DNA of 64,000 nt from Tribonema minus (Eukaryota > Sar > Xanthophyceae > Tribonematales > Tribonemataceae). Under the pieces are notes generated by a model. The model ran no database searches. It worked only from the letters and a program-made list of their open reading frames with translations, and was not told the origin of the DNA. Below, piece after piece: positions 27,240 through 59,058 of this stretch. Where the stretch lies: the NCBI GenBank assembly GCA_017506865.1, contig JAFCMP010000061.1, positions 248,001-312,000 on the forward strand, in the 5' to 3' direction. The position numbers were made by a program, and so were the translations under genes. The first letter of the stretch is position 1. Each line of letters starts with the position of its first letter.

Positions 27240-30200
27240 ATGGCGCCCAATGGCATCGCAAACGCGTCAGCCGCCGCTGCCAGCGCCAAGAAGCGCCAGC
27301 TGGGGGGGGCGTGGTCATTCATGCAGGCCCCCAGCAAGCGCGACATAGCGGGGCCGGGGGGCAAGCGGCGCAAGGCGCTCGACGCGCCGCCGCAGGAGTT
27401 TGACTACCTGCTGGTGATGGACTTTGAATGGAGTAAGTCACTGAGTGGGTTTGGTGCAGGAGTAAGTCACTGAGTGGGTTTGGTGCAAGTTGAAGGTGTG
27501 TGCGAGGTATACTGAAAGTATGCCACTGAGTGGATCTGGTGAAATTTGAAGTTATGTGCGGGGTTCTGAAAGTATATAGGAAGGTGCGGTTACAAGGTGA
27601 CTGTGCAGGAGTTTGACTACCTGCTGGTGATGAATTTCAAATGGCTACATCGTGCGGGGTACAAAAGGTATGCGAGAAGGTGTGGCTACAAGGTGTGCAG
27701 GAGTTTGCCTACCAGGTGGTGGTGGAGTTTGGACGGAGTGAGTCAGCGATGATGTGTCTGTTAGAATGCACGTAATTCAGCTACTAGCTCTTAGAAGTAT
27801 GTGTCACAAGGTCTGCATAAGAGGCAGACCCTTGGAGCCATTGATGGAAGTCGGGTGTTTGGGGGGGGTCAAGCACTGCTAGCTACCTCATGTTTAAGTG
27901 GTCGGCACCGCCAGTGGAAGTTGGTGGGCAACGCCTACATTGCTTGCAGATCGCAAGGTCTAGCAGTGACGACGTCGGAAGTGAGAAGTCTGTGTAAACC
28001 TTGGCCTCTGCCGTGATTGGCTCATGTGGTAAAATCACCATTTTTTGATGGCTAGTCGCCCACGCACGGTGATAGAGCTCTGTGTCAGTGCGCAATAGCC
28101 AAATGAATTCCTTGCTCTGTTGCGCTCCAAGCAGATCTTGCATGGGGCGATGCTTTTCTTGAAATGATAAGATCAACTAGGCTCCCGCTGCAGGAGATTG
28201 GCCCCATCGATGTTTGCTGGTGATACACCCATCTTCCACATGTGATTGCATGCATCATTTCAGCGTCCTTCCACGCTGCCGCATTTGCCGGCTGTGCGTG
28301 CTGTTCTTCTGCTGCAGCTGTCAGTGGTACCAAGGTCCAAATACCACTGGAGATCATCGAGTTCCCTGCAGTGCTATACAGGCAGGTGAGATCCATGGCG
28401 CCACCAGATACATCGCCTTCCAAGTTGTTCTGCAAGCTGTGAGAAGCTGACAGTAAACCGCTATGGCTACAGTACCTGCAAGCCATTTGCCTAATAAAAG
28501 GAGAAATAATGCACGACACCTATCACATGGCAGCTATCGGGATCAGCTGACGCTTCAGGCGCTGCTCTGAAGTCTGATACCTCTGGTTTGCTGTTGTTAA
28601 GCTACCCAGCCCAAGGTACTGCGTCATAGTTTCGTGCGCTCCCCTGCGCAGTGTCATTGTCGGGGCACTCTTTATTCGAGAACAATGCCGATGCAAGCAC
28701 AGCAACGAGGCGGCCATGCCAGTACAACCATATTGTTTGAGCCACCTGGTTGACAAGCGTGTGTCGCAGCTGCAATTGCACGGGGAGCGGGCACATGGCA
28801 GCAGTTTGCAGGGCAGAGGTGCTTGTATGGGGGTACGCAGCTTGCCTTGCCGTCTTTCATTGTGTGAAGCAGTCCGCAGTATGACTCATGAAGTGCCTCA
28901 TTCGCCTGCAGTAAGTCTTCACAGATCCATGCCTGCGCCTCTGCATGGTCGCTGTGCGCCACTCTGTGGCTGCGCATCTTCAGGTTTTGCCCTGCAGCAC
29001 ATACATCATGCAGTATCTCAAGCATGCCCCTTGGCGGGCACCTACATACACCTGATTTGTTCAGTGGAGCAAAACTTTTGGCTGTGGGCAGAGTAATGCA
29101 ATGCTGGCTTCCGAAGGCCGCATTTTGGGCAGTTTGCTTGATGACAGTGCCGTTTGCGCCACACGCAAAACTGTACATGTTGGCAAATCAAAGAGAGGTT
29201 TTTGCTGTGCGGCGAGTTTATCGCGAAGCACTTGAACAACTTGGTGCATCTGACACATGCTCTGCGCCGCGTGTCAACGCAACCGTGCTGCCTTGTGTGC
29301 AGCGGCCGCGGAATCCGAAGCTGGAGCTCGTCGCTGAGTTTCAGCGCTACTGCCGCCCCGTGAAGACGCCGCTGCTGTCTCCATTTTCCATGGAGCTGAC
29401 TGGCATCAAGCAGGTGCGTCCACTTCTAAGCAGACCAGAGAGCTGAGGCCCATCGCAAAGAACTCAAAAAGGGTACATGTGAAAGAGCTGACTCTAGGGC
29501 GGGGCCCATCACTACTACATCACAGGAATCTGATCAGGGCTTCGATATATCACATGTCGTGCTGAGGCACTCAGCCTTCGTTGACCATCTGCGGCTGGCG
29601 GGCATATCGTGTTTCATAGTGGGGCCCTAGCGGCCATGACAGCCCCCTGCTGATGACGCACGACATAGACACTGTTGCAGTCAGCTGCAAACACCGACCA
29701 ACGGCCAAAACGGCAGGCGCACTACTCTGCGGCTTTCAGATCATGTGTTGTGGTGCTGATCGCTCGCCGCCTCTGTGCAAGCATTGGCCAAAGCGCAGAT
29801 ACAAATGCTACAGCTATCGTTTGCGAGTGTGCGGTCAAACTGCATGTGCCCCATGTGGAACCAGTGGTCCTTTACAGTGCGTCGGGCGTCTGACAAGTTG
29901 TTGTTTGCATGATGTGGTTACGCTGCGCTGACACCACAAACAGCACAGAGGCCACTGTCCAGTGCCATGCTGTGAGAGCATAGCAGCTGTGCAGCTGGGG
30001 TTTATCCTGGGTTCATATCTGCAACTTGTGTGTCTTGCATCACTGATTACGCTGCCGATCATACTGTGGTCTTCTCATTGACGATTTGACAGCAACACGT
30101 TAAAATCACCAGTGACTGTGAATACATGCAATCGTGCTTTACCAATTCCATCAGTGTCCCAAACGGTGTGTGTTTGCAGGAGCAATGACAATACTAGTGA

Positions 30201-33200
30201 AAGCAGCTGGAAGACGTACTCAGAACGACTTGTAATACTACTGAAGTATCATTTACATACCGAGGTACTTTTTATGGTACCTGTTCACGGAATCTAAACA
30301 TATGTGTGGCTTCTGCATGTCAATCTGTTGACCGCCTTCAGGAGCAAGTCAGCGCTGCAGAGACACTACCTGTGGTGCTGCAAGAGTTTGAAGTGTGGCT
30401 GGGGGAGCAAGGGCTCTTGCAAGAGGGCATGCGTTTTGCCATTGTCACCTGGTGAGACTAAGCCCCCGATTTAAACTCATATACAGCCCACTGTGTTGTA
30501 CACAGATCTGCACTGCCACAATGCGCTAACGATGCATGATGATGCTGTACACCTGGATGGTCTGCTGTGCTCTCATGTACTCCAAAATAGCTTATGCATA
30601 CTGCTCAAATGTCATTTTCTACTACATGCCTACTCTGGTATGAGTTCATGGTCCAGAGTTTCATGACTGGACAGCAAGTGCTGTGTCTGACGTTGCACAG
30701 CTTTGAGCCACCAAGCTGCAGTACATTGGAAGCAGTGACTAAGGGGATGGGGTTGATATAGGATAACTTCTGACAATGAGGGAGATGGCTCCTAACATTA
30801 TGTGGACTGGAATCCCCTCATTGAGAGGTAGGATAGTTAACAGCATGTCCGACTTCAGCCGACTTTAGTCGACAATAGTCGCAAAAAATCACAGAAAACC
30901 GGTCATCACTGGCTATTTATCGACTGACACCGACTACAATCGGCTATAACCGCCCAAATCAGCGAAAACGGAAATTTGCCGACGTGATCAGCAGGCTTCG
31001 AAGCACGCTCCGCCTGCACGTGTGCACCTGTCGCTACCACGCTGCTGGTCATATGTGTGTAGTAGGGCAAGCAGCATCAATCATCCACAGCTACTGCTGC
31101 TGCTGCATCAGCAGCAGCGACCACACACGCATTTGCAGGCGAGGCTGCGAGTACCACGTGTTCTCTGCGTTCTAACGAGGTGCTTGACATGTCTACACGG
31201 CTGGGTGCCACACCAGCGGCCGCAAGGCTGCAGTGGCCGACTGCCCATTTGAGCTCTCTCAGCAGCACGCTTGCCTGAAACAAACACCGGAGACCCCGGA
31301 TTTCAGGAAAATTTGATTGCACCGCTGGAAAGCCCCACGTGTCAGGCATCGATTAGCCACCTCCTTGAGCCCCCTCGAGTCGATGGGGCTGAGCAAGGCC
31401 AAACCCTAGGCCAAACCCTAGTTACTTCAAGCACCGATTGAGTCACCAAATCCCTTGTAACTCTCAAAGTTTGGAGCCTGGGGACTTGAAAATAGGTGCA
31501 TTTGACAGGGCTCGTCAAGCCCGACCATTTGAGCTACTAAACACATTCAGGGAAGCGGGGTCTCCAGAGATACTTTCATGGAGGTGTGCTCATCCCCCTT
31601 GTCACTGCTTCCACTGTACACAATCATGGCAAAATACGGCACATCGTGGCATTCAGCAGCCTGGTTAAGTTTAGGTGGCAGGGGCTCCAAGAACTGTGAT
31701 CATACAGAAGCACTAATAAATATGCTTCCCGAAGAATTGCTCTGAAATTTGACTTGTGGAATGGGCATGAATTTTATGCATGTACTTTGTTGTTCGCCAG
31801 CATATGCTCACGATACTCTCCTGCTCTTGGTTGGGCACAGGTCTGACGCTGACTGCTTTGCCGTGCGGAGCAACTGCGAGGTCATTGGCATGGAAGTGCC
31901 ACTACACTTCAAGCAGTGGATCAACCTGAAGGTCAGTCTTACGCTTGTGTTCTGCTGAAGAAGATGCTGCTGCCGTCGCCGCCGCTGCTGCTGCTGCCGG
32001 CACTGCTGCTGCTGCTGCTGGCATTGCTGTTGCGGTTGCTGCTGTGGGCGCCAACGTCCTTTGGATGAGCGCAAAAGCAACCAAGTGCTGTTGAGGTTCT
32101 TCAGTGCACTTCACAGACGTCTTGTTGCGTATGACGTCTTGTTGCGTATGTTCTCTGTTGGCGATGCGGGTGCTTGAATTCAAAGTTTTCTGAAGGGGGA
32201 ATACAAAGGAGAGAAGTAGCCGTATCGGTTTCAACAATGTGAGCCTTTACAAGTTGTGACATGGAAGTGGCAAATAACAGTTTGAGTTTTGCATGCACAC
32301 TGTTTTAATTGTTACCCCCAGGCCAGCTACAAGCAGCACTTTAAGCGCGAGCCAACTGGCGGCCTCAAGTCGGTCGTTGAAGGGCTAGGCTTCCAATTCG
32401 ACGGACGGCCGCATTGTGGTCTGGATGATGCACGCAACACAGGTGCGCATGTCGAAGGCTCAGAATATACTAGCGCACAACGCATTGCAGTATCCTCTAG
32501 GTGAAACGAATGCAACAGCCCTGTGTGCTGAAACAGCTGCTTCCAAGCTGAATCTGAGGCAGTCGTCAACTGTAGTGCGGCCTACAAACGCAACACATGT
32601 GCACACGTGAGCGAGGTGTTGTTCATTCACAGGCTTCACTGCCATGACCCAGGTGTGGTGATGAAATGTGCTACTGGCTGTCTGAAGCTCAGATGGGCAT
32701 GTAGTGCTCTACTCTGAAGCTGCTTCACTGTATACATGCCAACTGCCGATGATTGCTTTGCAGTTTCTATGACTCAAAATTGTGCTTCGCCTGTGACAAT
32801 CCTGCTGAGTCACCTGGACGTTGCCAACTTCTTTGGCAGTTGCTTGGCGCGGTGCGTGAGTTGGTGCACGTTGGTGCGTGAGTTGGTGCACGTTGTCAGC
32901 TGAATTCAGGAGCAAACCGTATAGAAGTAATTTTGTTCAACTTGCAGGTGGCCACTTTGCGGGGCGGACTATGGGCATGTCACTGGCGCGCGCACTTAAA
33001 CCTCAAGTGCACGGAAAGTGTTTGAAGATGCTTGTTGCGCCAGTGCAGATTGAATGTGCAATGAGCCTGTTTATAAGCGCAGCCCGTGGCACACCTGAAA
33101 GACCTGGGTCCCGCTGCCCAAGCCATACTCACTGAAGTCAAGCAGTCATGTCCCCATCAGTTTGGCAACTGCAACTCAAAGTTGCTTGATGTGGAAGAGA

Positions 33201-33552: not shown

Positions 33553-33650
33553 CTAGCTGGCATTAGTATGTATGCATGTGCATATGCCAGCCATCCTCAA
33601 ACACGGAGCGCGTGCAGAGCTGCGGCAACATGAGCTACGAGCAGATGTGG

Positions 33651-33941
33651 GAGGCCATCCAGACGCGTCTTGACACCGCTGCCACCCGCGCCGAGGCACT
33701 GTTCGAGATCACCGACATAGTCTGGCGGCCCGAGTGGACCCTGCGCAACGCGCTCGCTGAAGTGGGTCTTTAGCACGGATGCGTCGACGGTGGCGCCCAC
33801 AGGGCCGGCGCGCTCCGCGGCATGAAGAAGCGCGTCCGCGAACTCGCGCGGGGTCCGCTCGGGCCGCCAGACTACGTCGGTGATCTCGAACAGTGCCTCG
33901 GCGCGGGTGGCAGCGTTGTCAAAACGCTTCTGGATGGCCTC
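33651..33941. repeat. Inverted repeat (90-bp arms) of a gag-like coding fragment
   Basis: Left arm 33651-33740 reads on + as EAIQTRLDTAATRAEALFEI.., and right arm 33852-33941 reads the same on -, with five differences in 90 nt and a 111-nt spacer. The minus copy continues through the spacer (REFADALLHAAERAGPVGAT). The style resembles a Ty3/gypsy-type gag region; that assignment is inference. A transcript in either direction would fold into a long near-perfect hairpin. It starts 99 bp after the stop of ERI1. Confidence 0.7.
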
Positions 33942-37657: not shown

Positions 37658-37677
37658 GCCGACTTGGGCCAACAAAC

Positions 37678-38667: not shown

Positions 38668-38834
38668 GAACTCTCGCCTCGCATCAAGGTCGGCTGCTGC
38701 TGCTGCAAAAAGCTCAGGTATTTGAACTTCAAGTAGAAAAGTTCAAATCAAAGTTGAGTTTCGCTGAAAGTTGACGTGAAAAGTCTCTGAAAGTTGACGT
38801 GAAAAGCTAAGCCCCGCGCCACGAGACGAGCATC
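38668..38834. promoter_or_regulatory. Compact divergent promoter with tandem TGACGT repeat
   Basis: Only 167 bp separate the start codons of the sulfotransferase (-) and the NO66 gene (+). A 20-bp element, CTGAAAGTTGACGTGAAAAG, occurs twice exactly, at 38764-38783 and 38787-38806 (23-bp period). TTGACGTG carries an ACGT core of the kind bound by bZIP factors. Repeat and spacing are seen; shared regulation is inferred. Confidence 0.6.
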
Positions 38835-41800
38835 ATGGAACAAGGAGGGGGGAGCAGGGCAGCGCAGAAGCGCCGGAAGAAGAAAGTCAAGCAGCATCAG
38901 CCGCAGCAGGAGGTTGCAGCCCGAGGTCCTCCTGCCAATGGTATCCAGCGTCCCGACAAGCACAAGTGAGTAGCGGGTTTCGAGTTACTGTGCCGCTGAC
39001 ACAGACTCTGATTGCATCACACGACATTGTGCTCAAGCCACCGCGCCTTGGCGTTCAGCATTCCTGCGTCACCTAACATGCTTGAACGACCCAATTGGCG
39101 ACTTCCTTCTCACTCGCCCTGGACCTGTGGCTTGAAGTTCATCAGCATTGCCAGATGCGAGATACCCAGCAGTAAGGCTGGGTCAGCGTCAAACGATCTG
39201 GAGTAGGCAAGCAAGCGAAGTTAGTTCAGGGTGGCGCAACTTGAAATTGGACTTGCGCTGCTGCCTTGTTTTTTTTTTCTCAAATAGAAGTAAAATGAAT
39301 TATTACATGTTCTCACGCCAGGAACTCCCAGCAGTGGTCTGAGGTGCACTTGTATTGCAGGCAGCAGCTGAATGGGAATGGGAAAGGCAAGCAAAAGGCG
39401 CAACCCAGGGCAGCACAGCAGCAGCAGCAGTACCAGGCTCAGCAGCAGCATGGCACCAAAAAGCGGATGCGAGAGGAAGAAGATACTGATGAAGGTGATG
39501 ACGGGGTGTGCATTCTTGCAACAATGCAGTTTTTGTGCACAGCTGGTTCTTCTGAGTGGCCGCATCAGCAAAGCGGCTCCTTTCGAGAAGTGACAACTAT
39601 TTTACATCACGCTGCAATCGCTGATCGCTGATGCTGCTATGTCTGTGTGTGTGTGTGACGTAGGGGGAGGGGCTGCTTGCTCGCAGAATTTTGAGGGGAT
39701 GGAAGCAAATGCCTACTGTACATTAAAAGCTGATGCCGGTGTCTTGCATTGTGGCATTGGCAGCACAGTTGAACTATGGTGATGAACTGGCTGCTAATGA
39801 CATCTGTGATTTCTGTGCTTACACTTGAAATACACCAGATAGTTTTTTTTTACACACCCTGACCTCATATATCGCAGATCACAGTGTTGTGGGCCACTTC
39901 TCGGCTTCATTCAGCCTTGCCAGCCCCGTGCACTCTGCCCACTCTGAATCTGTCAACGCGCGCTCCTCCCTCCCCTTCATTATGTTGACAGAAGACGATC
40001 CTCTGCTGGAGCACGACGGCAGCTACAGCGACGACGACGACGGCGCACTGCGCGGCGGCAGCGACAGAGGCAGCGAGCACAGCTCAGACGTGCCAGCCGT
40101 GGCGTCGGGGGGAGGGGGGAGCGGGGGGAAACGGGGGGACTCCGGGGGGGGGCGGCGCGGCGGCACGCCTCAGTACATTGTGACTGTGAATCCGGATGAC
40201 GAGCTGGAGCGGACGCTGCTGTCGCTGCCGGCGCGCGACGTGTGCGGCGACGCAGCGCTGGACAGCGGCGTCAAGGCGCGCCAGATGCTGCAGTGGATGG
40301 TCGCGCCCGTGGTGAGCGAAGAAGAAATGAAAAACGTATACTTCTAGAAGCAACTGTTTTATACCGTGCAAAACTTAATTATTCAATGACTTCTGTCCTC
40401 TTATGGGTTGAATTGGTTCTTAGTGTCAGCGGTGGCTCAGCGCCGGGAGGTGCACAGGGGGGGGGGGGGGGGGGGGGGGTCCCAGTGCTGCTGCTGCGGC
40501 ATCGCTGGCGCTTAGAGGGCTGCAGCAGTTGTTGCGTCGAGGGCTGCAGTGGATGGTCGCGGCCGTGTTGAGTGCGCGTCCGCAGTGGCAGCGCCCAGCG
40601 GTGCAAGCGAGCCTTTTAAGATAGGGCGTTTGTTACTGATTGCGGACCCGGGTGATCTCTCCACGGCCAGGAGGAGTGCTCAGCACCGGGAGGTGCAGCA
40701 GGGGCGGCACTGAGGCTGCTGTTGTGGTGTCGCTGGCGCGCTGAGGCTGCAGTTGATGTTGCGCTGAGTCCAGCAGGATGCGCGTAAGATGCTTACTTTA
40801 CGCCCGGGTGCTGGGGCACGTGCTTACCTCAACACTCGCTGCTGCGGCCATGGTGATCGCGGTGTGCGGTTTCCATACTGGTGTCAGCGCGCCACCACCA
40901 TTTAGGCTGTGGCGTGGCGCCGCAGTGGCGTCAGCGGCGTGGCAGTCTGCCGCTATGGTGATGCATGCATTGCCGCCCCCCTGTGCGACGGCAGGATGTG
41001 AGCATGCTCTGCGTGAAGGCACTCTACGCGCGCTGCTGGGAGTCCTGATCGTACCTTCGTCAACCACTATCGAGTACTGCGCTCTGGCTACGCCGGCCGA
41101 ACGTCAACTGCCGACGTCAGTTTACGAAGCGAAGGTCACCGGCACGGCAGCTGATCTCCCCCCCCCCCTCGTGCAACGGGCATGATGTTAACGTGTTCTA
41201 TACACGCTGCTGGGAGTCCTGCGTGAAATCTTCTACAAACAGTTCACGTTCTGCGCTGCTTTTACGTTGCCTGAGCACCAACTGCTGATGTCAGTTGATG
41301 ACGCGAAGGTCACCGCCCATGATCATTCACTGCATTCTAAAAATCACCGCTCGTGATTATTCACTGCATTGCTGCAACACCGGCCGACGCTGACTGCCAA
41401 TGTGAGTCGATGACGCGAAGGTCACCGCACGGCAGCTGATCTCCCCCCCCCACCCCGCGCGCCCCAACCCCCCGCCCGCCTCCCCTCGCGCAACGGGCCA
41501 GGACGTGAGTGTCTTCTACGCGCAGTCCTGCTTGAAATCTTCGTCAACCAGTGGTACTGCGCTCAGGCTACACCGGCCGAGCGCCGACTGCCAATGTCAG
41601 TCGATGAGGCGCAAAGGTCACCGCATCGCAGCTGATCCCTTCCCCCCCCCCCCGCACCCCACCCCCCGCCCCCCCCCCCTCGCGCAACGCGCCAGGACGT
41701 GAACGTGTTCTACGCGCGCTACTGGGAGTCATGCCCGCTGCTCGTCCGCCGCGCCTCCGCCCACTACTATGACGGCTGGATGTGCACCGCCACCAATGTC

Positions 41801-44800
41801 ACCTGATGACGCGAACGCCACCGCACGGCAACTCATACCCCCCCCCCCCGCCCCCCACCCCCTCTCGCGCATCGCGCCAGGACGTGAACGTCTTCTACGC
41901 GCGCTACTGGGAGTCGTGCCCGCTGCTCGTCCGCCGCGCCTCCGCCCGCTTCTACGACGGCTGGATGTCCACCGCCGACGTGCGAGCGTGCATCGCGCAG
42001 CAGGCCCTGCGCTACGGCTCCGACCTCGACGTCACCAACTTTGTCGAGGGGCGGCGCGTGACGCTGAACCCGCCGGCGCCGGAGGGGGAGGAGGGGGGCG
42101 CGGCCGTGGATGAGGGCTTTGTGTGGGGGAGCTTTGAGCGGGGGTGCTCGCTGCGCATGCCGTGCCCGCAGAAGTACTGGTGAGTTGGCAGTGGGGGGTG
42201 ACCATGTGTGCCCTGATAAGGTTATTGGTGCCTCGAGTGAAGTGAATGTTTGTCTCTGGACTCAGCTGTTATATAGCTGCCTGGTCCTGTGCATGTCTCA
42301 CAAGAATAGTAACGCTATTCCGCGTCCAGTGGTGGCAGCACAAGGGCGCTTTGTTATTGTGTAGTCATCATCAGCGACGATGTATACATTTAGCACAGTG
42401 GCAATTCTGGGTGTCAAGCGAAGCGTGAAACAAAGCATCTTCGTCTCTTGACGACTTTGTAATGACTGCTTGCCCAGATCTATGTGATGTAACGGCCATA
42501 AATTGCCAGCAGCAGGGTGACGACTACTTGATGGCCTGATGCACACATTGATGAATCATAGCTGCTCATGATTTACTCGGTGATGCCAGCGACAAGGTGC
42601 ACACTGCGTTGGCGAGCTCCGAGAAGTAGTGGGGTTGAGATCGACTGTGCAACATCAGCATCCTTACTGAAGTATGTACACGTGTTATCTCATGTCATGT
42701 CTTTCGAGGTAGGAATTCATATGCTGCTCATGCCTGTTGCTTGTAATGACAGTGACAAAGTGCACGCCCTACTGGCGAGCCTTGAGGAGGAGTGGGGCTG
42801 TATGGTGGGGGCGAATGTGTACCTGACGCCCCCGGGTCACCAGGGGTTTGCGCCCCACTACGACGACATCGAGGCCTTCCTGCTTCAGATTGAAGGTCGG
42901 TTCAGGCCATGACGATGATGCTGCCATCTGTGAAGCCAAAGACACAGAAGGACTGTGTTTCCAGCATTTTTTTGTGTGTGTGTTACCATTAGACTGTGCT
43001 GGGGGCATTGATCACAGAAATGCTGGCCGTTGAGTTTTGGACGTCGCTGCCTTCATAGACCAGAGCTCAGTTCGCCATGTCTATCATACTGCCGGTGCCA
43101 GGATCTCGAAGCTCGCTGCAGTGGTATGGTGGGCCTTGTCACGCTGCACTGATGAACAGCTGAACACGATGCCCCCTACTGATTTGCTCCTTTTTGTGAC
43201 TGTTTCTAGATTACTATGGCAGCTCATTCTACAGACGTGTGCTTGTCATGAATTGCCGCTTAGGGTGCGAACACGCCCAGATGGTTGATGTGAAGTCGCT
43301 ACCAGAATCTACATGCGCCTTGTGACAAAGTATCTTGTGGCTCATTGACAATCACTCTGAATGACGTCGCCAACAGACATGCACTTTTTCTTTTTTTTCT
43401 CACTGTTCCGCGAGGTTTCTGACACGTAAAGTCAATCACCACGCAGCTTACGCAGCGCACCCCATTGCCACGTCCCCCTAGGGTCAAAGCGCTGGAAAGT
43501 CTACGCGCCAGCGGGAGCAGAAACGAGTCTCCCGCGCACCAGCAGCGAAAACCTGGTGAGCACTGCTGCGTGGCAGCAGCGGCGCAGCGCATCTCAGTAC
43601 CTGTACGACACTATATGTACAACGCACCTCAGCACCTGTACGACACTGGTGCATTCCGCTAGTGTCGTACAGGCACCAATATGCATTGTGGCGACAACAC
43701 CTGGGCGCAGCTGCTGCGCGCATGCGGAGGCAGTGCTCAGGGCAGTGCTGAGCGATGACACACCCCGCAAGCAACAGCACACCACTGGTGACTGCTGTGT
43801 GACGCGCTGTTTGCATCGCTGCGTGGCAGCAGCGGCGCTGAGCACTGTTTGCCAGCTGCGCGCCCAGGCGTTGTCGATACAGTGCATCTCGGTACCTGTA
43901 CGACACTAGGTGTTGTCAATGCAACGCGTCGCGGTACCTGTATGATACTATGACAACGCATCTCGGTACCTGTACGACACTGGCGCATCTCACTACTGTA
44001 GTGTTCTACATATATCGAGATGCGCTATACGACACCAGGTGTCATTGATGCAACGCGTCTCGGTACCTGTATGACACTATACAACACATCTTGGTGCCTG
44101 TGCGATACTACAGCGCATCTCACTAGTGTCGCACAGGTACTGAAATGCGCTGCACGACACCAGGTGTTGTCGATGCAATGCGTCTCGGTAACTGTACGAC
44201 GCTGTACAACGCATCTCGGTACCTGTACGATACTGCTGTAGCGCATCTCACTTACACAGTGTCGTGTCGTACAGGAACCGAGATGCGTTGTATCGGCAAA
44301 ACCTGGGCGCACGCAGCCGCTCTGCGCATGCCGAGGCGGTGCTCAGGGCAGTGCTCAGCAATGACACATCGTTTGTGCAGCAGCAACGACTGACTCGGTG
44401 GCTGCTTTGTGATGCGCTACATAATAACTATGTGGTAGCGCTGAGCACTGATTTTTGTTGCTGAGGGGGCAGAGCTCAGGGCAGTGCTGTCCTTCAGCAA
44501 GAACCCGGCGAGCGCAGCGCGACTTGCTGTTTGGCAGTGCCCAGTGGAGGTTAATATATGAATGATGCTCTTTACTTCAAGAAGTATGAAACAAGTCCCT
44601 CTTCCCTCTTTCTCTATCCGTGCAGAAATGTACATGCGTGACAAGTCGCACAGGATTCGGTAATGGATGGGGGTATGCCGGTACACGTCAATGAGCATTG
44701 AGTCACCTTGTCACAAGGCGACATGTAGACCCTGGTAGCATGCTTGACATCAATCATCTGGGTTTATTCGCGTCCCAACCGAGAATAACATCAGTACGGT

Positions 44801-47800
44801 CCGGGTGTATTCACACCCCAAGCGAGCATAACATCAACACGAAGCACATGTACTCTGCAGCGCTCATCCCGCCCTTCTTGTGCACGCAGCACAGACGCCA
44901 GAGCAAGTGCAAGAGCTCGGTGAACCGGCCATCAAGTGCCATGCTGCAGCCTAACATAGATGCTCCGCATGGCCGCACCTCCTGCTCATCTGATCCTGAG
45001 AACTAATGAAGTACATTGAAGTACCTCACTCGGCAATTGGGGTATGCTAGTGTATCATTCTCTGACCATTTCAGCCGCCGTCCTCCCGCCACACGCATCA
45101 CAGACGCCAGAGCAAGTGCAAGAGCTCGGTGAACCGGTCATCGATGCTGTGCTGCAGCCTATCACAGTTGCTATATGGCCGCAACTCCTATTCATCTTAT
45201 TCCTTACACCAATGCAGTACGTCCAATTACCCGCTCGACGATCAGGTTATGACCAATTGAGCCACCGCCTTGCTGCCGTGTCACAGACGTCAGAGCAAGT
45301 GCAAGAGTCCGGTGAACCACACTTCAACACCGTGCTGGAGCCTATCACGGATGCTCTGCTCACCTGCAAATCCTGGCCATCTTACCCTGTAAACCAATAC
45401 AGTACATCGAAGCACGCCCTTCAGCTGGGGGGCTGCCCTCTTACATGCGCTGCAGAGCACTCGCCCGCCCTTCTTGTGCATGCGTCGCAGACGCCAGAGC
45501 AAGTGCAGGAGCTCGGTGAACCGACCATCAACCCATGCTGCAGCCTATCACAATTGCTCTGTATGGCCGCAACTCCCATTCATCTTATCCTGCACACCAA
45601 TGATGTACATTGAAGTACCCCACTCGACGATTTGTTTTATGACTGATTCAGCCCCCGCCTTGCTGCCACATGTGTCACAGATGCCTTTGATCGCCCCTGC
45701 ACATAGTTACAGTGAACATGCTACGGTATTATTGCTTTACTTCATTCAGCGCTGGGTACACACTCACCCATTCTCACTGTGCACGCGTTGCAGACGCCAG
45801 AGCAAGTGCAAGAGCTCGGCGAACCGGTCATCGACGCCGTGCTGGAGCCGGGTGACCTGCTGTACTTCCCGCGGGGCTGGGTGCACCAGGCAGTTACGGT
45901 TGCTGGGGGCCCCGCCAGCCTGCACTTGACCGTCTCCTGCTATCAGGTACTGCGGCTAAGCACTTGCAACATATATCCATACTGAACACCCATGCCTCAA
46001 ACGCTGAAAGCTTGCACACAGAAGTCGTTTGGCTCCTGCGGATCTGGTGGCACTGTTTGACAGGTGGCCAATAGCTGCAGCAGCGGCAAGTAATGAGCAA
46101 GTATTAAGGTGACCCTGGCTTTACCACTGAGCTGCAAAGCTTGTGTACACTTGGCAGGGTGGCCGTCCCCGTCTGGGGTGCCAGAATACCACATGCGTAT
46201 TCGAGAGCAGTGTTCAGGCACTGCGTATTGTGCACACATTCATGATGGTGAAGATGTCACTCCAAAGTACGTTCATAGAAGTAGTTTACTTTGAGCTACT
46301 GTAAGATCGACGTTGCCATGAATCAAAGTGCTTGACATGTAGAGAAGGTGTGGCGGCGGCAACTGGCGCCGTCACAAGTGCCTTGCAATGGCAGTCCCTG
46401 CCCAAGGACCATTTCGCAATTGATTTTGCAGGCCACAGTCTGCCTTACCGACACAAAGGGTTCTGCCGTCTTTTGCGCACAGAAAACCGGCTCGCTTGTC
46501 CGTGCGCATATCGCCCTTTCCTCATCGCTTCAGGGCAGCTGCTGGGCGTAGTCTACATGCTCGGGCCCCCGTTGACACCTATTACTTTGAAGTACAATGA
46601 ATTGAACGCACCGGCTACATTCTGCCTTGCCGCACCATGCCCCTGTCAAACTTACACTTAGAGAAGCGGCACGTTCGTCCGTGCATTCCGCGCCCCGTGC
46701 TCATCGCTCAGGGCAACGGCTAGGCAATATGCTCAGGCGCCTGATAAAACCTGTCATTGTGGTGAAATGAACTCGCCGGCTACATTTATTATTATTAGTT
46801 TGTTCTGGTTATTATTCTACCGGGGGTTATCTACGTTGATGAATTTATTGTAATTGTCATTGCAACCAGCTTGTGGTCGTTTTTGAGGTGTTACATTCCG
46901 CCATGCCGACACCATGGCTCTGCCAACCCTGCGCACCAAGAAACCAGCATGTTCACTCGCACTCCTGCCGCCGGTTCCTCACCCCTCGGGGCAACTGCTG
47001 GGCTGACATGCTCCACAGAACAACACCACGTTCACTCGTAAACCCGCCGCCATTGTTCCTCACCACTCAGGGCAACTGCTGGGCTGACATGCTCGAGACC
47101 CTGGTTCCCATGGCCCTGGAGGCTGCAGGGCGTCGCCACTTGGCGCTCCGCCAGGGCCTGCCCCGTGACTACCTACAGTATGTGGGGGTGGCCGCGGGGG
47201 AGGGGGACGCCGATGCGCGGCGGCAGGCCTTCGTCGCCGCCGCAAAAGGAAAGGTGGGTCGCGTTTTCATGGAGCTCGCTGGGTTTGTTTCATGTTGGCT
47301 GCATACGTGTTGCACTAATTGGTGATGAATGCCTTGCAGGTCTTTACTTCTGCCTCTGCAGCATCACACGGGGTTGCCGCACACTGTCGCCTGACGCTGA
47401 CCCTCAGGGGTATGCGGGCTACATGTGAAGACTGGCGAACAGGCCTCGAGGGCGCTGCTGCCGAAATAGTGCCTGCATACATGAGCAGTGGCGCTGCTCA
47501 GCGTTCGCTGCTCTGTGTAGTACCTTGCACGACGGCTGGAGTGTTTTTCCAACGTGCAGTGTCTACTGGCCCCAGAGCTTGCAGCGAATGGTGGAAATTG
47601 CGTACAAGCTGGCATGTTGACACCATAAGACTTGCATGTGCACAAACATGCTGCCGCCAAACTAAAGGGCGAGGACATAGAGGTATAACTTGTCCATAAG
47701 CTTATCATCATTGCTGTGTGTTAGACCCTCATAGCAGCAACCGACTGCAGGAAACACGTGTAACGGGCCGCAAGGACGCATTGACCTTACAGCTCTGCGG

Positions 47801-50800
47801 CCATGCTGTAGCAATTGACGCATGTGTTTCTGCATTCACGGTTCACACAGGTGGTAGGCGCGACGGCTGTGGGCGGGAGTTGCATTTGTCGAAATTTAGG
47901 ACGCGGGTCACTGGAGGGCTACATACTAGTGTCAGGGTTTGGCCATTGAATGATGTCAGTGTATCAAACAAGAGGGGATGCTAATGCGCTGCGCCGCATC
48001 GCTCGCGCAACACTGTCCGCAGATGAAGTTGGTCATGGCGGAAGCGATGGAGGCCATCGACGACGCTGCGGACCTGATGGGACGTCGGTTCATCAGCGAC
48101 AGACTCCCGCCGGTGCTTCATGAAGACGAGGCAAGTGAATTCATGAAGTGAACTCGTGTATTCATGTGTAGGACTGTACTGGCCTCGCCAGTGTCTCGTT
48201 GCGGAGGTGCTCACCTGTGCTGCAAGAAGCCAACGCATGCCACACTGATGTACAATGAAGCATCCTGTTGCTCAATTGCAAGCATGGGACGCAGTCGTGC
48301 GGGATCTGGCCAGTCTGCTGCAGCTCGCCACGCCACGTTCCATGGAAATCCATTGATCGCTTGTGACAGCATTCAATGCAGCTGCCACCTTCCCGCCGGA
48401 TGGGGGACTTGTTAACTGCTCTCAGTGTGCACGTGAGCACACTCATCTTATGTCGGTTTCCTCACCGCCTCGCCATGCGCTCGCTGCTTGCATGCCCACC
48501 TTGCGCGTAACACCGCAGGGGAGGCAGGTACTGATGTGCAGAAGTAGTGCATACCTGTCACCTGCATACATACGGTATGCCTACCACCGCATACAAGGTT
48601 GGCATCGCTACAATCTGAAATATATTGCATATCTACCGTCTGCATGTCCCACGTACGCGCATCAGGCAGCTCAACATCATCCACCTGCCTACGTTGCGCT
48701 TCACGAGGCACTCACGCGTGCACTGCCCACGCTGCAAGCTTTCGTGCTGTGCGCTGACTCGTCACGTGCTTGCTGCCGGCGTGCCCACCTTCTTTCTTAT
48801 ACCTGCCTACCCACTATATGCAGGAGGCCGTCAGCGTGCTGCAGCTCCCCACGCCGCGCTGGACGGGGCTGTCGCGCGTGCGCTGCCTGCGCCGCGGCAT
48901 CGCGCGTCTCGTCGTTGAAGACGGCATGGCGGTAAGCTTTCAACGCCGTGCTCAGCGGCAGGTTGTGTATTGGTTGCAATATTTCCATGCTGTAGCTCGC
49001 AAGAAGTACATGAACACTTGGCGTCGCGTTGTTGCATGTAAGGCTGCGCTGCCTGCGCCGCGGCATTGCGCGTCTCGTCGTTGAAGACGGCATGGCGGTA
49101 AGCATGTCAACTGCATGTTGAACAATGGGGTTTGTAACACTATCCATGTTGCAATTGCCTTAATCAACATTGGCGTCGCGCTGCCTGCGCCGCCGCATCG
49201 CGCGTCTCGTCGTGGAAGATGGCATGGCGGTAAGCTTTCACCTTCACACTCAGCGGCAAATTGCGTATCAGTTGTCCATGTTGCAGCTCACAAGAAGTTC
49301 ATCATCATTGGCAATGAGTAGCTGCTGGCAAGGCTGCGCTGCCTGCGCTGCGGCATTGCGCGTCTCGGTGTGGAAAATGGCATGGCGGTAATAAGCATGT
49401 CAATTCAGCGGCAGGTTGTGCATCAGACATGTTGCAATCACTTTATGAACATAGGTGCTGAGTTTTGCGCTGCCTGCGCCGCAGCATCGCGCCTCGTCGT
49501 GGAAGACGGCATGGCGGTAAGCGGTAAACATTAATGTGCCAGCGGTGCATGCAGGGGTGCAAGTGCGACCCCTGCAAGTGCGACAGCACGTGTGCGGTGG
49601 TTGCTGAGAAGCGCGCAGCTCAGCACGTGTTTGTTGAAGTTTCAATCTCAAGTTGAACCTCACAGTGTCATGTATCAGTGGCAGCAGATCCAGGTTGCAT
49701 CTCATACAGGAATTGGCGTCGAGTTGCTGCCTAAAATGGTGAGCTGCCTGCGCCGCGGCATCGCCCGTCTCATTGTGGAAGACGGCATGGCGGTACGCTG
49801 TGACCACGCTGAGCCACAGGGCCGTGTAAATTCATGTTGCAGCTTGTACATGACCATTGGCGTCGAAAGGGTGATTGTTTGTTGACGCACTGGTGTGGGT
49901 CATTCATGTTTACCTATGCTCTTTGCGCCGCAAGAGCTTTGGCCTGGGCAACTTAATTGCGCTGTGGCTTCAAAAGGATCTTCAAATGTCTGCAGCTTAC
50001 TGACATCACAACTTTGCCCCAGAGTTCAATGTTGGCAGCTGAGTCAGTGCTTGCATCTAAAGGATGACCGCAGCAGGAGGTGGCTGCATTGCCACTTACG
50101 GTGGCAGTGGCAAGAACTGGTGGTAAACGCTCCTCCGCAGTAGTGCATGCAAAGTTTGGTTCGGCTTAGCGGTAGGGTTTAGGGTTAGAGCAGGCAACCG
50201 ACGTCCATCATAGGCTGATGGTATTTTCTCTGCATTCAAGCGGCAAATGTGATCAATTTGCCAACTATAAACCACGTCAGGGGCAAGTGCATGCCTTGTG
50301 CCTCTGCAGCTGCGCCAATGTACTGCGCACAGCCAAGAGGCCTGCGTGCTGGCATATAACACCACATGCCTGTGCAGCATTTGCGTACAACAGAGGAGCT
50401 CCTCTTGAAGCATGTGTGGCGCGAGCGCACACTGCAGCTGGTGCCGCCATATGCAGCGCAGGCGCACACCGACTGCAGCCATCACGCCCAGCTAATGCTA
50501 ACGTTGAAATGCGGTTGAAGTTCGAGCTCGGCCGAACTTCAACCGGCTCCAACGCGCAGATCCAGCTCAGGTCCCGCTTCGAACTTGCCCCTCACATACT
50601 CCGCATTTGCTGCAACTTCCACAGGTCGTGTACCACTGCATGGACAACGCGCGCGTGCACCACGGCAACCCGCTGCGGCCGCTGGAGTTCGAACTCGATG
50701 ATGCGCTCGCGATAGAGACGCTCCTCGCAGCGTACCCGCGCGCCGTCGCCATTAAAGACTTGCCCCACCCGCCTGCGGAGGACCTCGATGACAAGCTGGA

Positions 50801-53321: not shown

Positions 53322-53404
53322 GTGACTTGAACTTCAAACGTCTTCATACGTGAACTTGCTAGGCCCAGCAGTTGGCAGGGGTATGGGCGGCTTAGGGTGC
53401 GCGC

Positions 53405-53408
<4 letters not shown>

Positions 53409-53452
<44 letters not shown>

Positions 53453-53453
53453 G
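53409..53453 (+). repeat. CTG microsatellite
   Basis: An uninterrupted (CTG)n run of about 14 units. It creates long artificial Ala/Leu/Cys frames on both strands. Confidence 0.9.
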
Positions 53454-54013
53454 GACGCGCGCATGGTGAGCGCTGCTGTTGCTGTGTGGCTACGAGCGCA
53501 GAGCCACTGCTGCAGCATTATTGCGCAAGCTGCAGTGAACTGTTGGGGTACTGTGCCAAAGTTGTGTGCTGTGCCAGCTGCCGAGCGCTGCGCTGATGCC
53601 CGTGCTGATTGCTGCTGCGCCGTTTTCACTGGCGCAAGCGGTCAGATACCCTGACCCGTCGATCGTCAAATGCACGCGCTGACGGCTGCACAACTTATGG
53701 CACGCTCCCACGCATATAGTGTGCTGGTGTCATTTCTGGTGGACCCTGAGGCGGAGCACATGCCCCATAGCAACAGCACACAATGCCCTAGAGCAACGGT
53801 TAAATTGGATGGGTGCGCCTGGAGCATCGACATATTCTTCGTGAAAGCATGGCAGCTGCTGCTGCCGCCATTCTCGGCAGCGGAGCGCTGCGCTCATCCA
53901 CTCGCCGATCACCGCTGCCAGCGCACTGGCACGCGCTCGCGCGTCGACCCTACCTACCTACCCACTGGCGCCAGCTGCTGAGCGCTGCGTTGACCTCCTT
54001 CTCGCCCGCGCAG

Positions 54014-55332
54014 GCCCGCGACAGACGTGGGCGGGCGCCTCGCCGTCGTCTATGCGCACGGCGCGCGCGAGTTCGACTGGCACCTGGCGCTGTACGGTCC
54101 GCATGCCCCCAACGGCACCGTCGTCAACGTCATCGTCGCCAGCCCCAGCAACGCGTGCGATGCCGAGGCGCTCATGCGAGTCTCGCGCATGCACGCTGCC
54201 GCCGCTGCCGCCACACGTTGTCGCTGTGCGAGTGTCGCAGTGGCCAAAGCGCCGCTGTCTGTGGCAAACAGGCGCAGCGCTGAGCACTGTTGCATGGTGC
54301 GCGCTGCCCCCCTGCAGCATCTGCCCGCCTGCTTGCGTACGCCCGCCGCCGCGCTGTCGCGCTCGGACTGCAGTGACAGCTGCGTCGCGGCGTGCATTCC
54401 GTGCGTGCATGCTTCCGCTCGCACACAGCGCCCTCTAGGTATACATATATGTATCGGTGCTCGGGGCGACCCCCGTATGAGCCGGCGTTGCCGCTGCTGC
54501 TCGCTGCTGTCCAGCGCACCTGAACAGTCTGCAGCGCTTCCGCACACGCAGCGGCCACCGCGTGTGCAAGTGTCACCTGTGCTGGCGCCACTGGCATCAG
54601 TGCGCAACGCAGCCCCACATGGCAAAACGGGCGTCTGTGTCACGTGCTGATGTCACCTCGCCGCCGCCACTGACACGCAACTGCTCACGTGTAACTGCCA
54701 CTCATATGCTGATGACGCACATGTGATCGACATGCGCGACCGGCAATCGCGCGCAGTGCCGCCGCCCAGTGTGCGCATGGCGCCTTTGAGCGTCGCACTT
54801 GTCATTGCGGCGCGCGGCGTGTGCCCGTTCGCGTCACCACCGCTATGATGCAACCACCATCGCCAGGCAACTGCCATGCGCACGTGGCTGACTGACGCAA
54901 TCTTCCGCTGCACGCGCCTCTGCCCCCGTGCGTTTTCAGGGTGTGCGTGCGCGACAGCTTTGTGATAGCGCAGCGCGGCGTGTGCTTGTTCATGCAACTG
55001 CCACCATCATGTAACTGCCACTGACTGACGCAATTGCGCTGCGTGTGCCTCCGCCCGTGCGTGTTCAGGGTGCGCGTGCGCAGCAGCTTTGTGATTGCGG
55101 AGCGCGGCGTGTGCTCGTTCATGTAACTGCCACCCTCATGCAACTGCCACTGACTGACGCATTTGTCCGCTGTGCGCGCTTCCGCCACCGTGCGTGTGCA
55201 GGGTGCGCGTGCGGGGCAGCTTTGTGATTGCAGAGCGTGTGCTCGTTCAGCATGAAGACGCTCGCGCTGCAGAAGGCGGGCGCCCTGGGCATGATCCTCA
55301 GCAACAAGCCCACCACGACGCTGCGCATGATA
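54014..55332 (+). CDS. PA-domain protein (N-terminal half of the fold), partial model
   Basis: An exon from 54014 (after CGCGCAG) reads GGRLAVVYAHGAREFDWHLA.. and SPSNACDAEAL. Further on, exon 55069-55122 (VRVRSSFVIAERGVCSF) joins in phase to 55251-55332 (MKTLALQKAGALGMILSN). This is the PA consensus: I(A/V)LVERGxCSF..K...AQ.AGA.G.I..N. PA domains occur in secreted or luminal proteins (sorting receptors, SPPL and subtilisin proteases); no protease motif is seen, so a PA-only protein is possible. The middle exon exists in three tandem copies (about 54943, 55069, 55201), and the model uses the donor of copy two and an acceptor inside copy three. The 3' continuation beyond 55332 is unresolved; a piece near 56420-56520 ending ARFFNEDYYGAYG may be its terminus. 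Confidence 0.45.
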
Positions 55333-55384
55333 GTGCGTCACACTTGCTGCTGTTGCATTCTGTAACAGCCGACTGTTGAAAAGC

Positions 55385-56040
55385 GGTGCGCATGATCCTC
55401 ACCGACAATTGCCGCCGCAACGCTCCGCATGATGGCACGTCACCTGCCGCTGAGTTGGTGTTGCACATTTGAAACAGTCAGAATTGAGGTAATTGGCTTG
55501 ATGAATACGTGGCAGCGACGTTACGCATGATGGTGCGTCACGCGCTGCTTAGATGTCATGGCTGCTTGTGCCAGTCGACTTGAAGCAGTTGGCATGAACT
55601 TCAGCAATAGATTATTGCCAATCATGCCGCCATGTTGATCATCCTGGGGGCTTACGCTGCTTAGATGTCATGGCTGCTTGTGCCAGTCGACTTGAAGCAG
55701 TTGGCATGAACTTCAGCAATTGACTATTGCCAATCATGCCGCCATGTTGATCATCCTGGGGCCTTAACCTTCTTTCTCGTGGACATGGCAAGTCACTCAA
55801 CATCTCATCCACCTCATCCCAGCTGCACATGGTGGTGCGTGACGTGCTGCAACGACGCTGCTGCGACAGTGCAAGAACCCGCAGTCAGCGGTCCAAGCGT
55901 CCGACGCCGTGTGTTGAGGATGCTGTGTCACGGTGACAGCGCGTGTCGCTGCCTTCGTCCTGTGCAAGCCAACTTGAAGCATTCTGCATGACCCTCACCA
56001 GCAGCGCCGCCTCGATGCTGCGTATGATGCTGCGTTGGTA
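55385..56040 (+). repeat. Copies of the PA exon edge and a 112-bp tandem duplication
   Basis: The exon edge GCATGATCCTCAGCAACAAG..CTGCGCATGATAGTGCGTCA is echoed near 55391, 55520, 55825 and 55984. Within this stretch a unit starting TTAGATGTCATGGCTGC (55549) repeats almost exactly at 55661, period 112 bp, and so is recent. Confidence 0.75.
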
Positions 56041-56164
56041 TATGAGTACGTGATACTTCACGCTCGCGAAGCAACGTCTATTTGGCAACAGATGCCGCGC
56101 GCGCGCACACCCTCAACTGCACAACCCCATGTACCACATTGCGCCGCGCAATCGCAGGCCCCAC

Positions 56165-56450
56165 TGGCAGAGGAGGGAAGGCCAAGCAGATTTGTTGAGC
56201 GCTGCAGAGTCTGAGACCTCCGCCGCATGATGAGGTGTGCTGCTTCGTCAACTCTTCACAGAACCCCCCCCCCCCCCCCCCCTCGAAGCCAAGCAGACTT
56301 ATTAAGCGCTGCCGAGCTTGAAACTGCCGCCGCGCGTAATGAGGTCATGCTGCTTCTTCCACTCTTCATGCACGCGCCCCCCGCCCCCCCCTCCCCCCCC
56401 CTGCGTTTCGGTTTTGCAGGCCCCGGAGGAGGAGGCCAAGCAGGCACGCA
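56165..56450 (+). repeat. Decoy starts before the exon at 56421
   Basis: AGGCCAAGCAG plus flanks occurs at about 56174, 56288 (GAAGCCAAGCAG) and in the exon-like piece itself at about 56438. The copies are separated by poly-C tracts (18 C at about 56262). Same pattern as the NO66 acceptor arrays. Confidence 0.5.
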
Positions 56451-56571
56451 TCCCCAGCGCGATGGCCAGCGCGCCTCGGCGGCGTTGCGCTCGCGCGCTT
56501 CTTCAACGAGGACTACTACGGCGCGTACGGCTGAGGTCGCTGCTGCTGCTGCGGGCGGCCGCGCGGCCACT

Positions 56572-56945
56572 GCTGCCGCGCGACCCCCGGTGCCGCCGGC
56601 ACAGGCGCGCCGTGCGCGTGTCTCGGGTATCGCGCGGCGTGCAGGCGCTGCTGCGCGCGGACACGGCACAGCTAGTCGCTCCCAGCACGGCTGCTGGCAG
56701 CGGCGTGCAGGCCTTCGCGAAGACTTCCGCAGAGCGGGCTCCGCTGCTGCTGCAGCTGCGCGTCAGCTGCTGCCGCGCGTCCCACGCCGCCTGCACAGGC
56801 GCGCCATGCACACGTCTCGGTTCCTGCGCGGTGTGCGTGCGCCGCTGCGCGCGGACACGGAACAGCTGGTCGCTGCCGCCGCGACTGCCGGCGGCGGCGC
56901 GCAATCCTTTCGCGGAGACTCGCACAAAGCGGGCTGCGCAGTGCT
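56572..56945. repeat. Two GC-rich tandem copies, about 198 bp period
   Basis: The block from CTGCCGCGCG..CACAGGCGCGCC through GCGCGGACACGG..CAGCT to CTTCGC/CTTTCGCG..GCGGGCT is present twice. It generates long open frames on several strands; no protein family is recognised in any of them. Confidence 0.6.
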
Positions 56946-57208
56946 GGCAAGTGCGCACACGTCGCGTGATGCACTGCTGCTGTGCTGCTGCCGCCGCTGA
57001 CTTGCCTGTCTGTGTTGAGGTTGTGAACACCCATGCGGTGCACGTGTTTCGGTGCCCGACGAGACTACCCGAGCGACATGGCACCGACATCACACCTGCA
57101 GCTGCCCGTGGGCGCCCCACGCTCGACCTGCGAAGGCCACGACGCGTAACGCCATCCGCTGCTCAGCGTCTAGCGCACAGCAGCAGGCAGCCACACTTGC
57201 GTACACCC

Positions 57209-59058
57209 CTATGCACACTGAATGTGGATCCGTGGCATGCAGTTGGCGGGTGGCGCCGCGGCGGCGCCTGCAGCGTGGCCGCCGCTGCGGGAGGCAGCGC
57301 TCAGCGCGGCGTAGCTGTCGGCGGAGGCGTTGCCGCCGTCCGCGTTCTCCGACACGGCGGCGGCGGCTGCGGCGGCGGCGGGGCGCGGGCACGCGCGCAG
57401 TCCCGGCTGGTCGGGGTGGCGGCGCAGCACGTACGTGAGCGTAACGCGGTGGCCCGCCTCCACGGGCGCGATCTCGTGGCGGCAGTGGCCGTAGAAGGCC
57501 GCCCACTGGAGGCGCGGCGCCGCGGCGCGCGTGAGCACGTCGCGGCGGCAGCGGCGGCGCTCCTCCACGTCGCGCGCCGCCGGCGCCAGGCGGTACAGCG
57601 GCGCGTCTCGCGCCGCGTTTGCCGCGTTTGTCTGCGTGATGATGCGGCCCCAGTCGAGCCGCATGGAGGGGACGTCGCTGCCAGGGGCCTTGTTGGTGTC
57701 GGGGCAGGCGGCGGCGGCGGCGGCGGCGGGGCGCATGTTGTTCCAGATGCTGAGCTGGCCGCCGCTGAAGGCGGAGAGTAGGCACACCACCTGCGTGCGA
57801 CACGCCCGTGGCGTTGTGATGACTTGTAGGCAGCAAGTGAAGGCAGGTGTAAATTGGGTTCGGTGACGTGCCATGTTCAGTGACGTGCAGCAAGTGAAGG
57901 TGGATGTAACGTGAGTGCAGTGGCGTTTCACGCTTCGGGGGCTCGAGATCGTGAGCTAGTGTTGGGGAGAATATGAGGGATAAGTAGGTGGAGGGCAGGC
58001 GCGCAGCCTGCCTGCGGCATGGCAATGTTGCACGTATCATCTGCAGCCATTCCAGCAGCGCTCGGCGCTGCGCTACACGGTAGCAAGTACCTACCTGCAT
58101 GCTTTATCATGAAGTTGACTCACCAGCAATTTAGAGGTGGTCAGCTCGTGGCGCGGCATATGTCACAGGTAGCACGCAAAGGCACACTTCAACACGTTGA
58201 ATTGACTCACCAGCGATCCGAAGGCCAGCTCGTCACGCGGCGTGTCGCGGTGGCACGCGCAGAGCACACTGCAAGATGGGTGTAGTTGACGCACTTCAAG
58301 ATGGTGAAGGTGACTCACCAGCGATCCGAAGGCCAGCTCGTCGCGCGGCGTGTCGCGGTGGCACAGAGCGCACTTCAAGATGGGTAAAGTTGACACACTT
58401 CAAGATGACTCACCAGTGATCCGAAGGCCAGCTCGTCGCGCGGCGTGTCGCGGTGGCACGCAAAGAACCCCCCCTCCTCGTACACGTTGACCTTCAGCAG
58501 CTCCGCGGTGATGCCGAGGTGCGCGTCCGGCACGAGCTTTGCGCGCACCGCCTCCAGAATCCCCAGCGCCTCCACGTCCACGCCAGTGCTCAGGATGCGC
58601 TCCGGCGGCACGTGCGCCGCCTTGCGCACGCTGTCGTCGAACACGGTGCGCTGGTTGTGGCCGAAGGGCGACGGGTCGCACGCCGCGAGAAACGCGCTGT
58701 ACTCCGCGCTGACGCTCTGGTGCTCGTCGGCGGAGTGCAGCGCCGCAGGCAGGGACAGCGTTAGAGGAGCGTCACCTTTCGCTGCGTCCTTGGGCAGGAT
58801 CTCCAGTTTCACGCCGTCGGTGGGCACGGAGCCGGCGCACACATATGCGTCCTCTAGGCGCAGGATGGCATCCGCGATCTTGCCAAGCGTGGCTTTCGTC
58901 GTGTCCTCTGGCTCCTCATCTGAAGCGTCCGCGGCTTCGCCGGCAGCAGCCTCTGGCTGGGGCACAGGTGCAGCCTTCGCCTCGGTGCTCAAGGCAGTGG
59001 CGGCGTTGGCGGAGGCAGAGGACTGTGGCGCAGAGGTAAGCACATGCAGCGCCAACAT
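57209..59058 (-). CDS. PKHD-type 2OG-Fe(II) oxygenase (prolyl-hydroxylase-like)
   Basis: Two minus-strand exons, 59058-58414 and 57790-57209, join in phase to 408 residues. Core motifs: NVYEEGGFFACHRDTPRD (iron ligands His202, Asp204), FGSL|VVCLLSAFSGGQLSI, then WAAFYGHCRHEIAPVEAGHR (third ligand His320, Arg330 for 2-oxoglutarate) and VTLTYVLRR. This is the double-stranded beta-helix of large algal/fungal 2OG oxygenases. A poly-Ala loop (about 237-243) and an Ala-rich tail are low complexity. Substrate unknown. The start is uncertain: ATG 59058 is simplest, but a CCACAG acceptor 30 nt inside the frame would allow an upstream exon. The end of exon 1 is copied three times in the intron. Confidence 0.75.
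58118..58470 (-). repeat. Four-copy donor array of the 2OG oxygenase exon 1
   Basis: On the minus strand the end of exon 1 (CHRDTPRDELAFGSL plus CTG|GTGAGTCA, exon end 58414) is repeated with exon ends at 58319, 58211 and 58124, steps of about 87-108 bp. The first two copies are near-identical and keep GTGAGT; the third is diverged but keeps GTGAGT. Confidence 0.9.

What the first reader, a model, noticed from the sequence alone, without database searches (positions are those of the whole stretch)
27240..59058. Serial duplication of exon edges creates decoy splice-site arrays in many genes
In NO66, KMO, ERI1, the 2OG oxygenase and the PA gene, the final or initial 40-60 nt of an exon, with its splice site, has been copied one to five times into the adjacent intron at about 95-275 bp spacing. 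Copies show graded decay, and some keep perfect GTAAGC/GTGAGT donors or CAG acceptors. Donor-edge copies lie downstream of the real exon, acceptor-edge copies upstream. This suggests either a recurrent mutational process (templated local duplication or slippage anchored at exon borders) or a splice-choice system where many equivalent sites compete. I know of no standard name for this. It would also be a route of intron growth.
Basis: partly seen in the sequence, partly recalled or inferred. Interest (0 to 1): 0.88.

Follow-up and report, generated by a model that had tools for sequence, protein, structure and literature searches.

The report
Exon-edge copies fill adjoining introns
In this genome, probably an alga's, about a third of the exon ends that were tested have copies of themselves, splice site included, in the neighbouring intron; the copies show no sign of being kept for a use, but their exon-derived half looks refreshed from the real exon, which points to a local copying process that makes introns grow.

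Summary
In the window, exon-edge copies with splice sites are confirmed in NO66 (a donor array of 5 copies, an acceptor array of 4, one further acceptor copy), an Fe2OG oxygenase (3), a PA-domain gene (2) and the gene called ERI1 (2, gene name unconfirmed). KMO was not found. It is not confined to the window: of 60 exon edges placed by homology in 8 kinesin genes, 19 have a copy in the adjacent intron (wrong side 0 of 55; intron-internal windows 47 of 754 side tests). Copies look neutral: changes private to one copy fall 33/20/23 on codon positions 1/2/3, while the 8 changes separating the real exon from all its copies are all synonymous. A conserved splice-choice system is therefore not supported. 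Plain tandem duplication with decay does not fit either: exon parts differ by 8%, flanks of the same copies are close to unalignable, and the two divergences are uncorrelated (Spearman +0.14; about -0.6 expected). Best explanation: frequent local tandem duplication across splice sites, then recurrent exchange (conversion-like) between the selected exon edge and its decoys. Exchange and splicing are inferred; no RNA, relative or haplotype data were available.

The parts
48823..48931 (+). NO66 exon whose 3' edge is copied; real donor at 48932
   Evidence: reading frame, homology of joined exons, RIOX1_C_WH
49045..49097 (+). donor-edge copy 1 of the NO66 exon
49180..49229 (+). donor-edge copy 2
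49335..49387 (+). donor-edge copy 3
   Evidence: the Pfam winged-helix model also touches this stretch weakly (E 0.037)
49466..49516 (+). donor-edge copy 4
49739..49792 (+). donor-edge copy 5
45794..45947 (+). NO66 JmjC exon whose 5' edge is copied upstream
   Evidence: JmjC_2 hit
44895..44951 (+). acceptor-edge copy of the JmjC exon
45104..45159 (+). acceptor-edge copy of the JmjC exon
45287..45342 (+). acceptor-edge copy of the JmjC exon
45491..45545 (+). acceptor-edge copy of the JmjC exon
47071..47253 (+). NO66 exon with one acceptor-edge copy
46990..47013 (+). acceptor-edge copy of the exon starting 47071
40543..40572 (+). weak copy (30 nt, donor lost) of the NO66 exon-1 edge at 40287-40311; tentative
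58414..59061 (-). Fe2OG oxygenase exon (upper limit = open frame) whose 3' edge is copied; real donor follows 58414 on the minus strand
58124..58360 (-). three donor-edge copies of the oxygenase exon, ends at 58319, 58211, 58124
55202..55311 (+). PA-domain exon start (end = end of the Pfam match)
   Evidence: Pfam PA hit below cut-off at 55219-55311
54940..55121 (+). two acceptor-edge copies of the PA exon, starting about 54940 and 55069
27392..27432 (+). exon edge of the gene called ERI1 (gene name not confirmed)
27605..27745 (+). two donor-edge copies of that edge, ends at 27645 (GT lost) and 27737

Best explanation
Short tandem duplications (copies 81-303 bp apart in the window) are frequent in this genome. 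When a unit straddles a splice site, the copy that stays contiguous with the exon body keeps working and stays under selection; the other copies become part of the intron as decoys, so the intron grows. SHOWN by computation: arrays on the predicted side only, in about a third of tested edges; decoys free of coding constraint; a step in similarity at the splice site; no correlation between the divergence of the exon part and that of the flank of the same copy. INFERRED: the exon-derived part of decoys keeps exchanging sequence with the functional edge (gene conversion, unequal exchange or replication template switching within the short homologous island). The functional edge cannot drift, so exchange keeps that island alike, while flanks outside the constraint boundary drift apart and drop out. 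INFERRED: the spliceosome joins the outermost sites (first donor, last acceptor), because only that join gives the conserved protein.
For: Frequency and side: 19 of 60 edges (8 donor, 11 acceptor), wrong side 0 of 55, null of 3118 comparisons; 47 of 754 side tests for intron-internal windows after dropping 26 windows that overlap decoys, Fisher p 2e-8. Local repeats in 20 of 20 position-chosen 10-kb regions. Neutral decoys: 33/20/23 private changes, 20 of 76 synonymous; 8 of 8 exon-side changes synonymous. Star-like relation to the exon: copy-copy exon divergence 13.2% exceeds real-copy 9.3%. Step: exon side about 0.8-0.95 identity for 40 nt, intron side about 0.65 from about +10 to +80, unrelated about 0.55. 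Decoupled ages: Spearman +0.14 over 42 copies; shared-age simulations average -0.55 to -0.65, and 0 of 150 runs in each of 8 settings reach the observed value, also with introns mutating 2-4 times faster. Replicated on 22 copies at 9 further edges (r -0.01) and on 36 copy-copy pairs (r 0.04). Mosaic example: at L033 5242 one copy has exon divergence 0.100 with intron-flank score 80, another 0.028 with score 15. Outermost joins: joined NO66 and oxygenase exons align with homologues over 97% and 84-88% of the query in their best hits.
Against: No exchange tract was observed directly. Copies were found through their exon part, which favours well-kept exon parts; simulations included this filter but with simple mutation models. 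In the reverse search, from the intron flank, 5 of 60 edges had a copy and their exon parts were not better kept (82-90% identity). Structural turnover of flanks could also decouple the two halves. In single-copy arrays 30 of 50 differences are at third positions, somewhat more than my estimate of about 47% for a neutral copy plus a constrained exon. Mean similarity alone could be met by introns mutating 2-3 times faster. Exon-part gaps are rarer than the neutral simulations give (0.52 per 100 nt against 0.8-2.4).
Confidence: 0.55

Rival explanations
1. Ordinary tandem duplication across splice sites, with neutral decay and no later exchange. Edges are over-represented because one side of each pair, the exon, does not drift.
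For: Flanks are detectably homologous in 24 of 30 copies at p<0.05, as tandem units predict; the side rule and neutrality of copies fit.
Against: With detection bias simulated, exon divergence of about 9% predicts about 14-15% flank substitution and a mean flank score of 40-43; observed 26% and 24.5. Ages are uncorrelated. The excess at edges over intron-internal windows is about five-fold per side (0.317 against 0.062), more than the roughly 1.6-fold that I estimate from slower decay alone.
Confidence: 0.2
2. Exon borders are hot spots where a transcription- or splicing-linked process (R-loop, paused polymerase, templated repair) repeatedly writes copies of the exon edge into the intron.
For: Excess at edges over intron-internal windows; exon parts younger than their flanks; interstitial telomere-like repeats hint at frequent break repair.
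Against: The excess can also come from better preservation; most flanks are homologous, so whole units spanning the edge were copied.
Confidence: 0.15
3. Decoys are a functional array of competing splice sites under selection.
For: 12 of 15 donor copies keep GT and 17 of 19 acceptor copies keep AG; exon parts have few gaps.
Against: Private changes in decoys ignore codon position; 3 of 15 donors are GC; decoy spacing is irregular; use of a decoy would normally add intron sequence to the mRNA (inference).
Confidence: 0.06
4. Assembly artefact or a dispersed intron-making element (introner).
For: None found beyond repetitiveness.
Against: Copies differ from each other by 13% on average in the exon part, so they are not the same bases read twice; the NO66 array has matches at its own locus only.
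Confidence: 0.02

Closest known systems
[quoted passage not shown] abstract and outline seen)
   Same: A tandem duplication crosses an intron-exon boundary and splicing signals are inherited with the copy.
   Different: There one gene gains a new intron; here many edges of existing introns carry several copies inside the intron and the protein is apparently unchanged; exon parts seem to keep exchanging with the source.
Introners (PMC9860276; search listing and start of abstract seen)
   Same: Mobile growth of intron sequence carrying splice sites.
   Different: Introners are dispersed relatives in many genes; here each array is a copy of its own exon edge.
Minisatellites with concerted evolution (recalled, no call)
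   Same: Local tandem arrays, copy-number change, sequence exchange between units.
   Different: Homogeneity is confined to the part that is exon in the real copy.
Tandem alternative splice sites such as NAGNAG (recalled, no call)
   Same: Equivalent splice sites near each other.
   Different: Those lie a few nt apart and are used; here copies are 81-303 bp apart in the window, with 20-100 nt of exon.

Membership tests
[quoted passage not shown]
[quoted passage not shown]
   copies lie inside introns bounded by the homology-defined exons; whether any of these introns is itself new needs relatives
Introners | related copies dispersed in many genes | tested here: not met
   one array tested: matches to the NO66 edge only at its own locus
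Mutually exclusive or duplicated exons | whole exon copied with both splice sites | tested here: not met
   self-hits of 16 of 36 kinesin exons involve exon starts or ends, none a whole exon with both edges
Concerted tandem repeats | sequence exchange between units | tested here: inconclusive
   indirect: decoupled ages; no exchange tract seen
Tandem alternative splice sites | alternative use in transcripts | not testable with these tools
   no RNA data

The most novel reading that the evidence does not exclude
Exon borders in this lineage are active write sites: a transcription- or splicing-linked copying process keeps depositing and refreshing copies of the exon edge in the adjoining intron, so that introns grow as living archives of their neighbouring exons, and the spliceosome copes by an outermost-site rule.
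Probability: 0.2. Interest if true: 0.88.

Novelty: new variant of a known kind. Interest (0 to 1): 0.72.

Why it matters
If it holds genome-wide, introns in this lineage lengthen largely by copying their own exon edges, which gives a measurable source of intron growth and thousands of natural tests of how a spliceosome picks one of several near-identical sites. The decoys also form a built-in neutral record next to each constrained exon edge, which makes rates of duplication, decay and gene conversion directly measurable.

Tried and rejected
KMO: not found (and one-strand scans 9, 10). ERI1: Pfam gave nothing, name left open. Coding constraint on decoys: suggested by 55 of 109 third-position differences, rejected after polarising. 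Faster intron mutation alone: meets the mean at 2-3 fold but not the missing correlation. Haplotype test: contigs C90/C179 looked like an allelic pair, but the 8-kb pair L036/L037 holds long open frames and no clear exon-edge array, so it was of no use. Gradient with distance: 6 of 12 arrays, no rule. Literature: 7 searches showed no report of pervasive exon-edge copies; this covers only the open-licence library and those terms; one paper opened (abstract and outline), the rest seen as listings. Dropped rows: of 72 edges of 36 kinesin exon hits, 60 could be placed; 4 of 34 copies scoring under 45 were left out. The boundaries of two edges (PA, L026 1896) are 1-2 nt off.

Full report
What is there. 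The window is G000:C61:248001-312000 of a 158.2-Mb, 554-contig genome. The NO66 protein joined from the window is most like those of Chrysoparadoxa australica (59%) and Phaeothamnion (55%), then oomycetes, so the organism is probably an ochrophyte (inference).

Is it general? A Pfam kinesin search listed 132 exon-level matches in the genome. I fetched 8 of those genes. Of 36 exon hits, 16 have local self-hits, and each of these involves an exon start with copies upstream or an exon end with copies downstream. I placed 60 edges by reading frame, consensus and known kinesin motifs (the motifs recalled). With 40 exon nt plus 6 intron nt as query, 19 of 60 edges have a copy within 1 kb of adjacent intron above the 99.9% point of 3118 comparisons with other loci, 18 above the highest of them; wrong side 0 of 55; mid-exon 1 of 16. 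Intron-internal windows: 57 of 403 have a copy on either side; without the 26 windows that overlap decoys, 47 of 754 side tests (internal targets are somewhat shorter because they stop at the intron ends). Twenty 10-kb regions chosen by position all hold local repeats. In one of them, L020, a Flavodoxin_2 exon (E 1e-16) has 4 acceptor and 3 donor copies; in L026 an array coincides with weak, below cut-off MMACHC matches at two places.

Are decoys kept by selection? Comparing real exons with copies gives an excess at third positions, 55 of 109. Polarising in arrays with two or more copies shows why: changes private to one copy are 33/20/23 (20 of 76 synonymous), changes where the real exon differs from all copies are 0/0/8, all synonymous; changes shared by some copies are 4/2/8. 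The decoys drift freely; the exon does not. Single-copy arrays, which cannot be polarised, give 7/13/30, slightly more third-position change than I expect. Splice dinucleotides remain in 12 of 15 donor and 17 of 19 acceptor copies.

Are they simple tandem duplications? Units do include intron flank: 24 of 30 copies have a flank more like the real flank than 95% of unrelated pairs. But the two halves do not agree. Substitutions: real-copy exon part 9.3%, flank 26.4%; copy-copy exon part 13.2%, flank 30.2%; unrelated 34.4%. A neutral tandem-duplication model with the same detection filter predicts about 14-15% in the flank when the exon part is at 9%. Identity falls within about 10 nt of the splice site from about 0.9 to about 0.65 and then stays flat to 80 nt (the first 6 intron nt were part of the query). 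Exon divergence and flank similarity are uncorrelated: +0.14 over 42 copies, +0.25 over the 32 full-length ones, against means of -0.55 to -0.65 in shared-age simulations, none of whose 150 runs in each of 8 settings reached the observed value; introns mutating 2-4 times faster match the mean but not the missing correlation (an earlier score-based version, agrees). A further 22 copies at 9 edges, picked because repeats had drawn attention to them, give r -0.01; 36 copy-copy pairs give 0.04. Against this: searching from the flank instead finds copies at 5 of 60 edges, and there the exon part is not better kept.

Reading. The simplest account of all this is duplication across the splice site followed by exchange between the constrained exon edge and its decoys, which resets the exon part but not the drifting flank. 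The relation is star-like, with copies further from each other than from the exon, as expected if the exon is the hub. Exchange itself is inferred. Flank replacement by other rearrangements is the main alternative for the decoupling, but it should not produce a step at the splice site followed by a flat level.

Known and new. A duplication across an intron-exon boundary is known from single cases, for example potato RdRp (PMC4974935). I found no report of a genome in which a third of tested edges carry such arrays, within the seven searches named. I therefore call it a new variant of a known kind.

Noticed in passing
326 kb of window and loci L008-L035: Interstitial telomere-like repeats: 52 places with two near (T/G)TAGGG units or their complement, 0 expected from a first-order Markov model, in 15 of 29 sources; possible scars of break repair.
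   Followed up: partly
window 59154-59335 and 61019-61111: The same TACTCGTAC-rich 42-bp minisatellite unit occurs at two places 1.7 kb apart.
   Followed up: no
window 43584-44418: An intron of NO66 holds a different array of about 125-bp units with inverted CTGTACGACAC / GTGTCGTACAG motifs, unrelated to an exon edge as far as seen.
   Followed up: no
window 55202-55260: In the PA-domain gene the exon-contiguous copy differs from both decoys by 5 nt of gap that changes the reading frame, while the decoys read through that part: sequencing error, allele or a broken edge.
   Followed up: no
L036 and L037 (contigs C90, C179): Two contigs about 94% alike with long open frames, some of them kinase-like; haplotigs, viral or other foreign DNA.
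   Followed up: partly
C445:424414-424931, C4:335831-336561: tRNA synthetase profile matches overlap the same profile part at two nearby places in one gene, as exon-edge decoys would; not examined.
   Followed up: no
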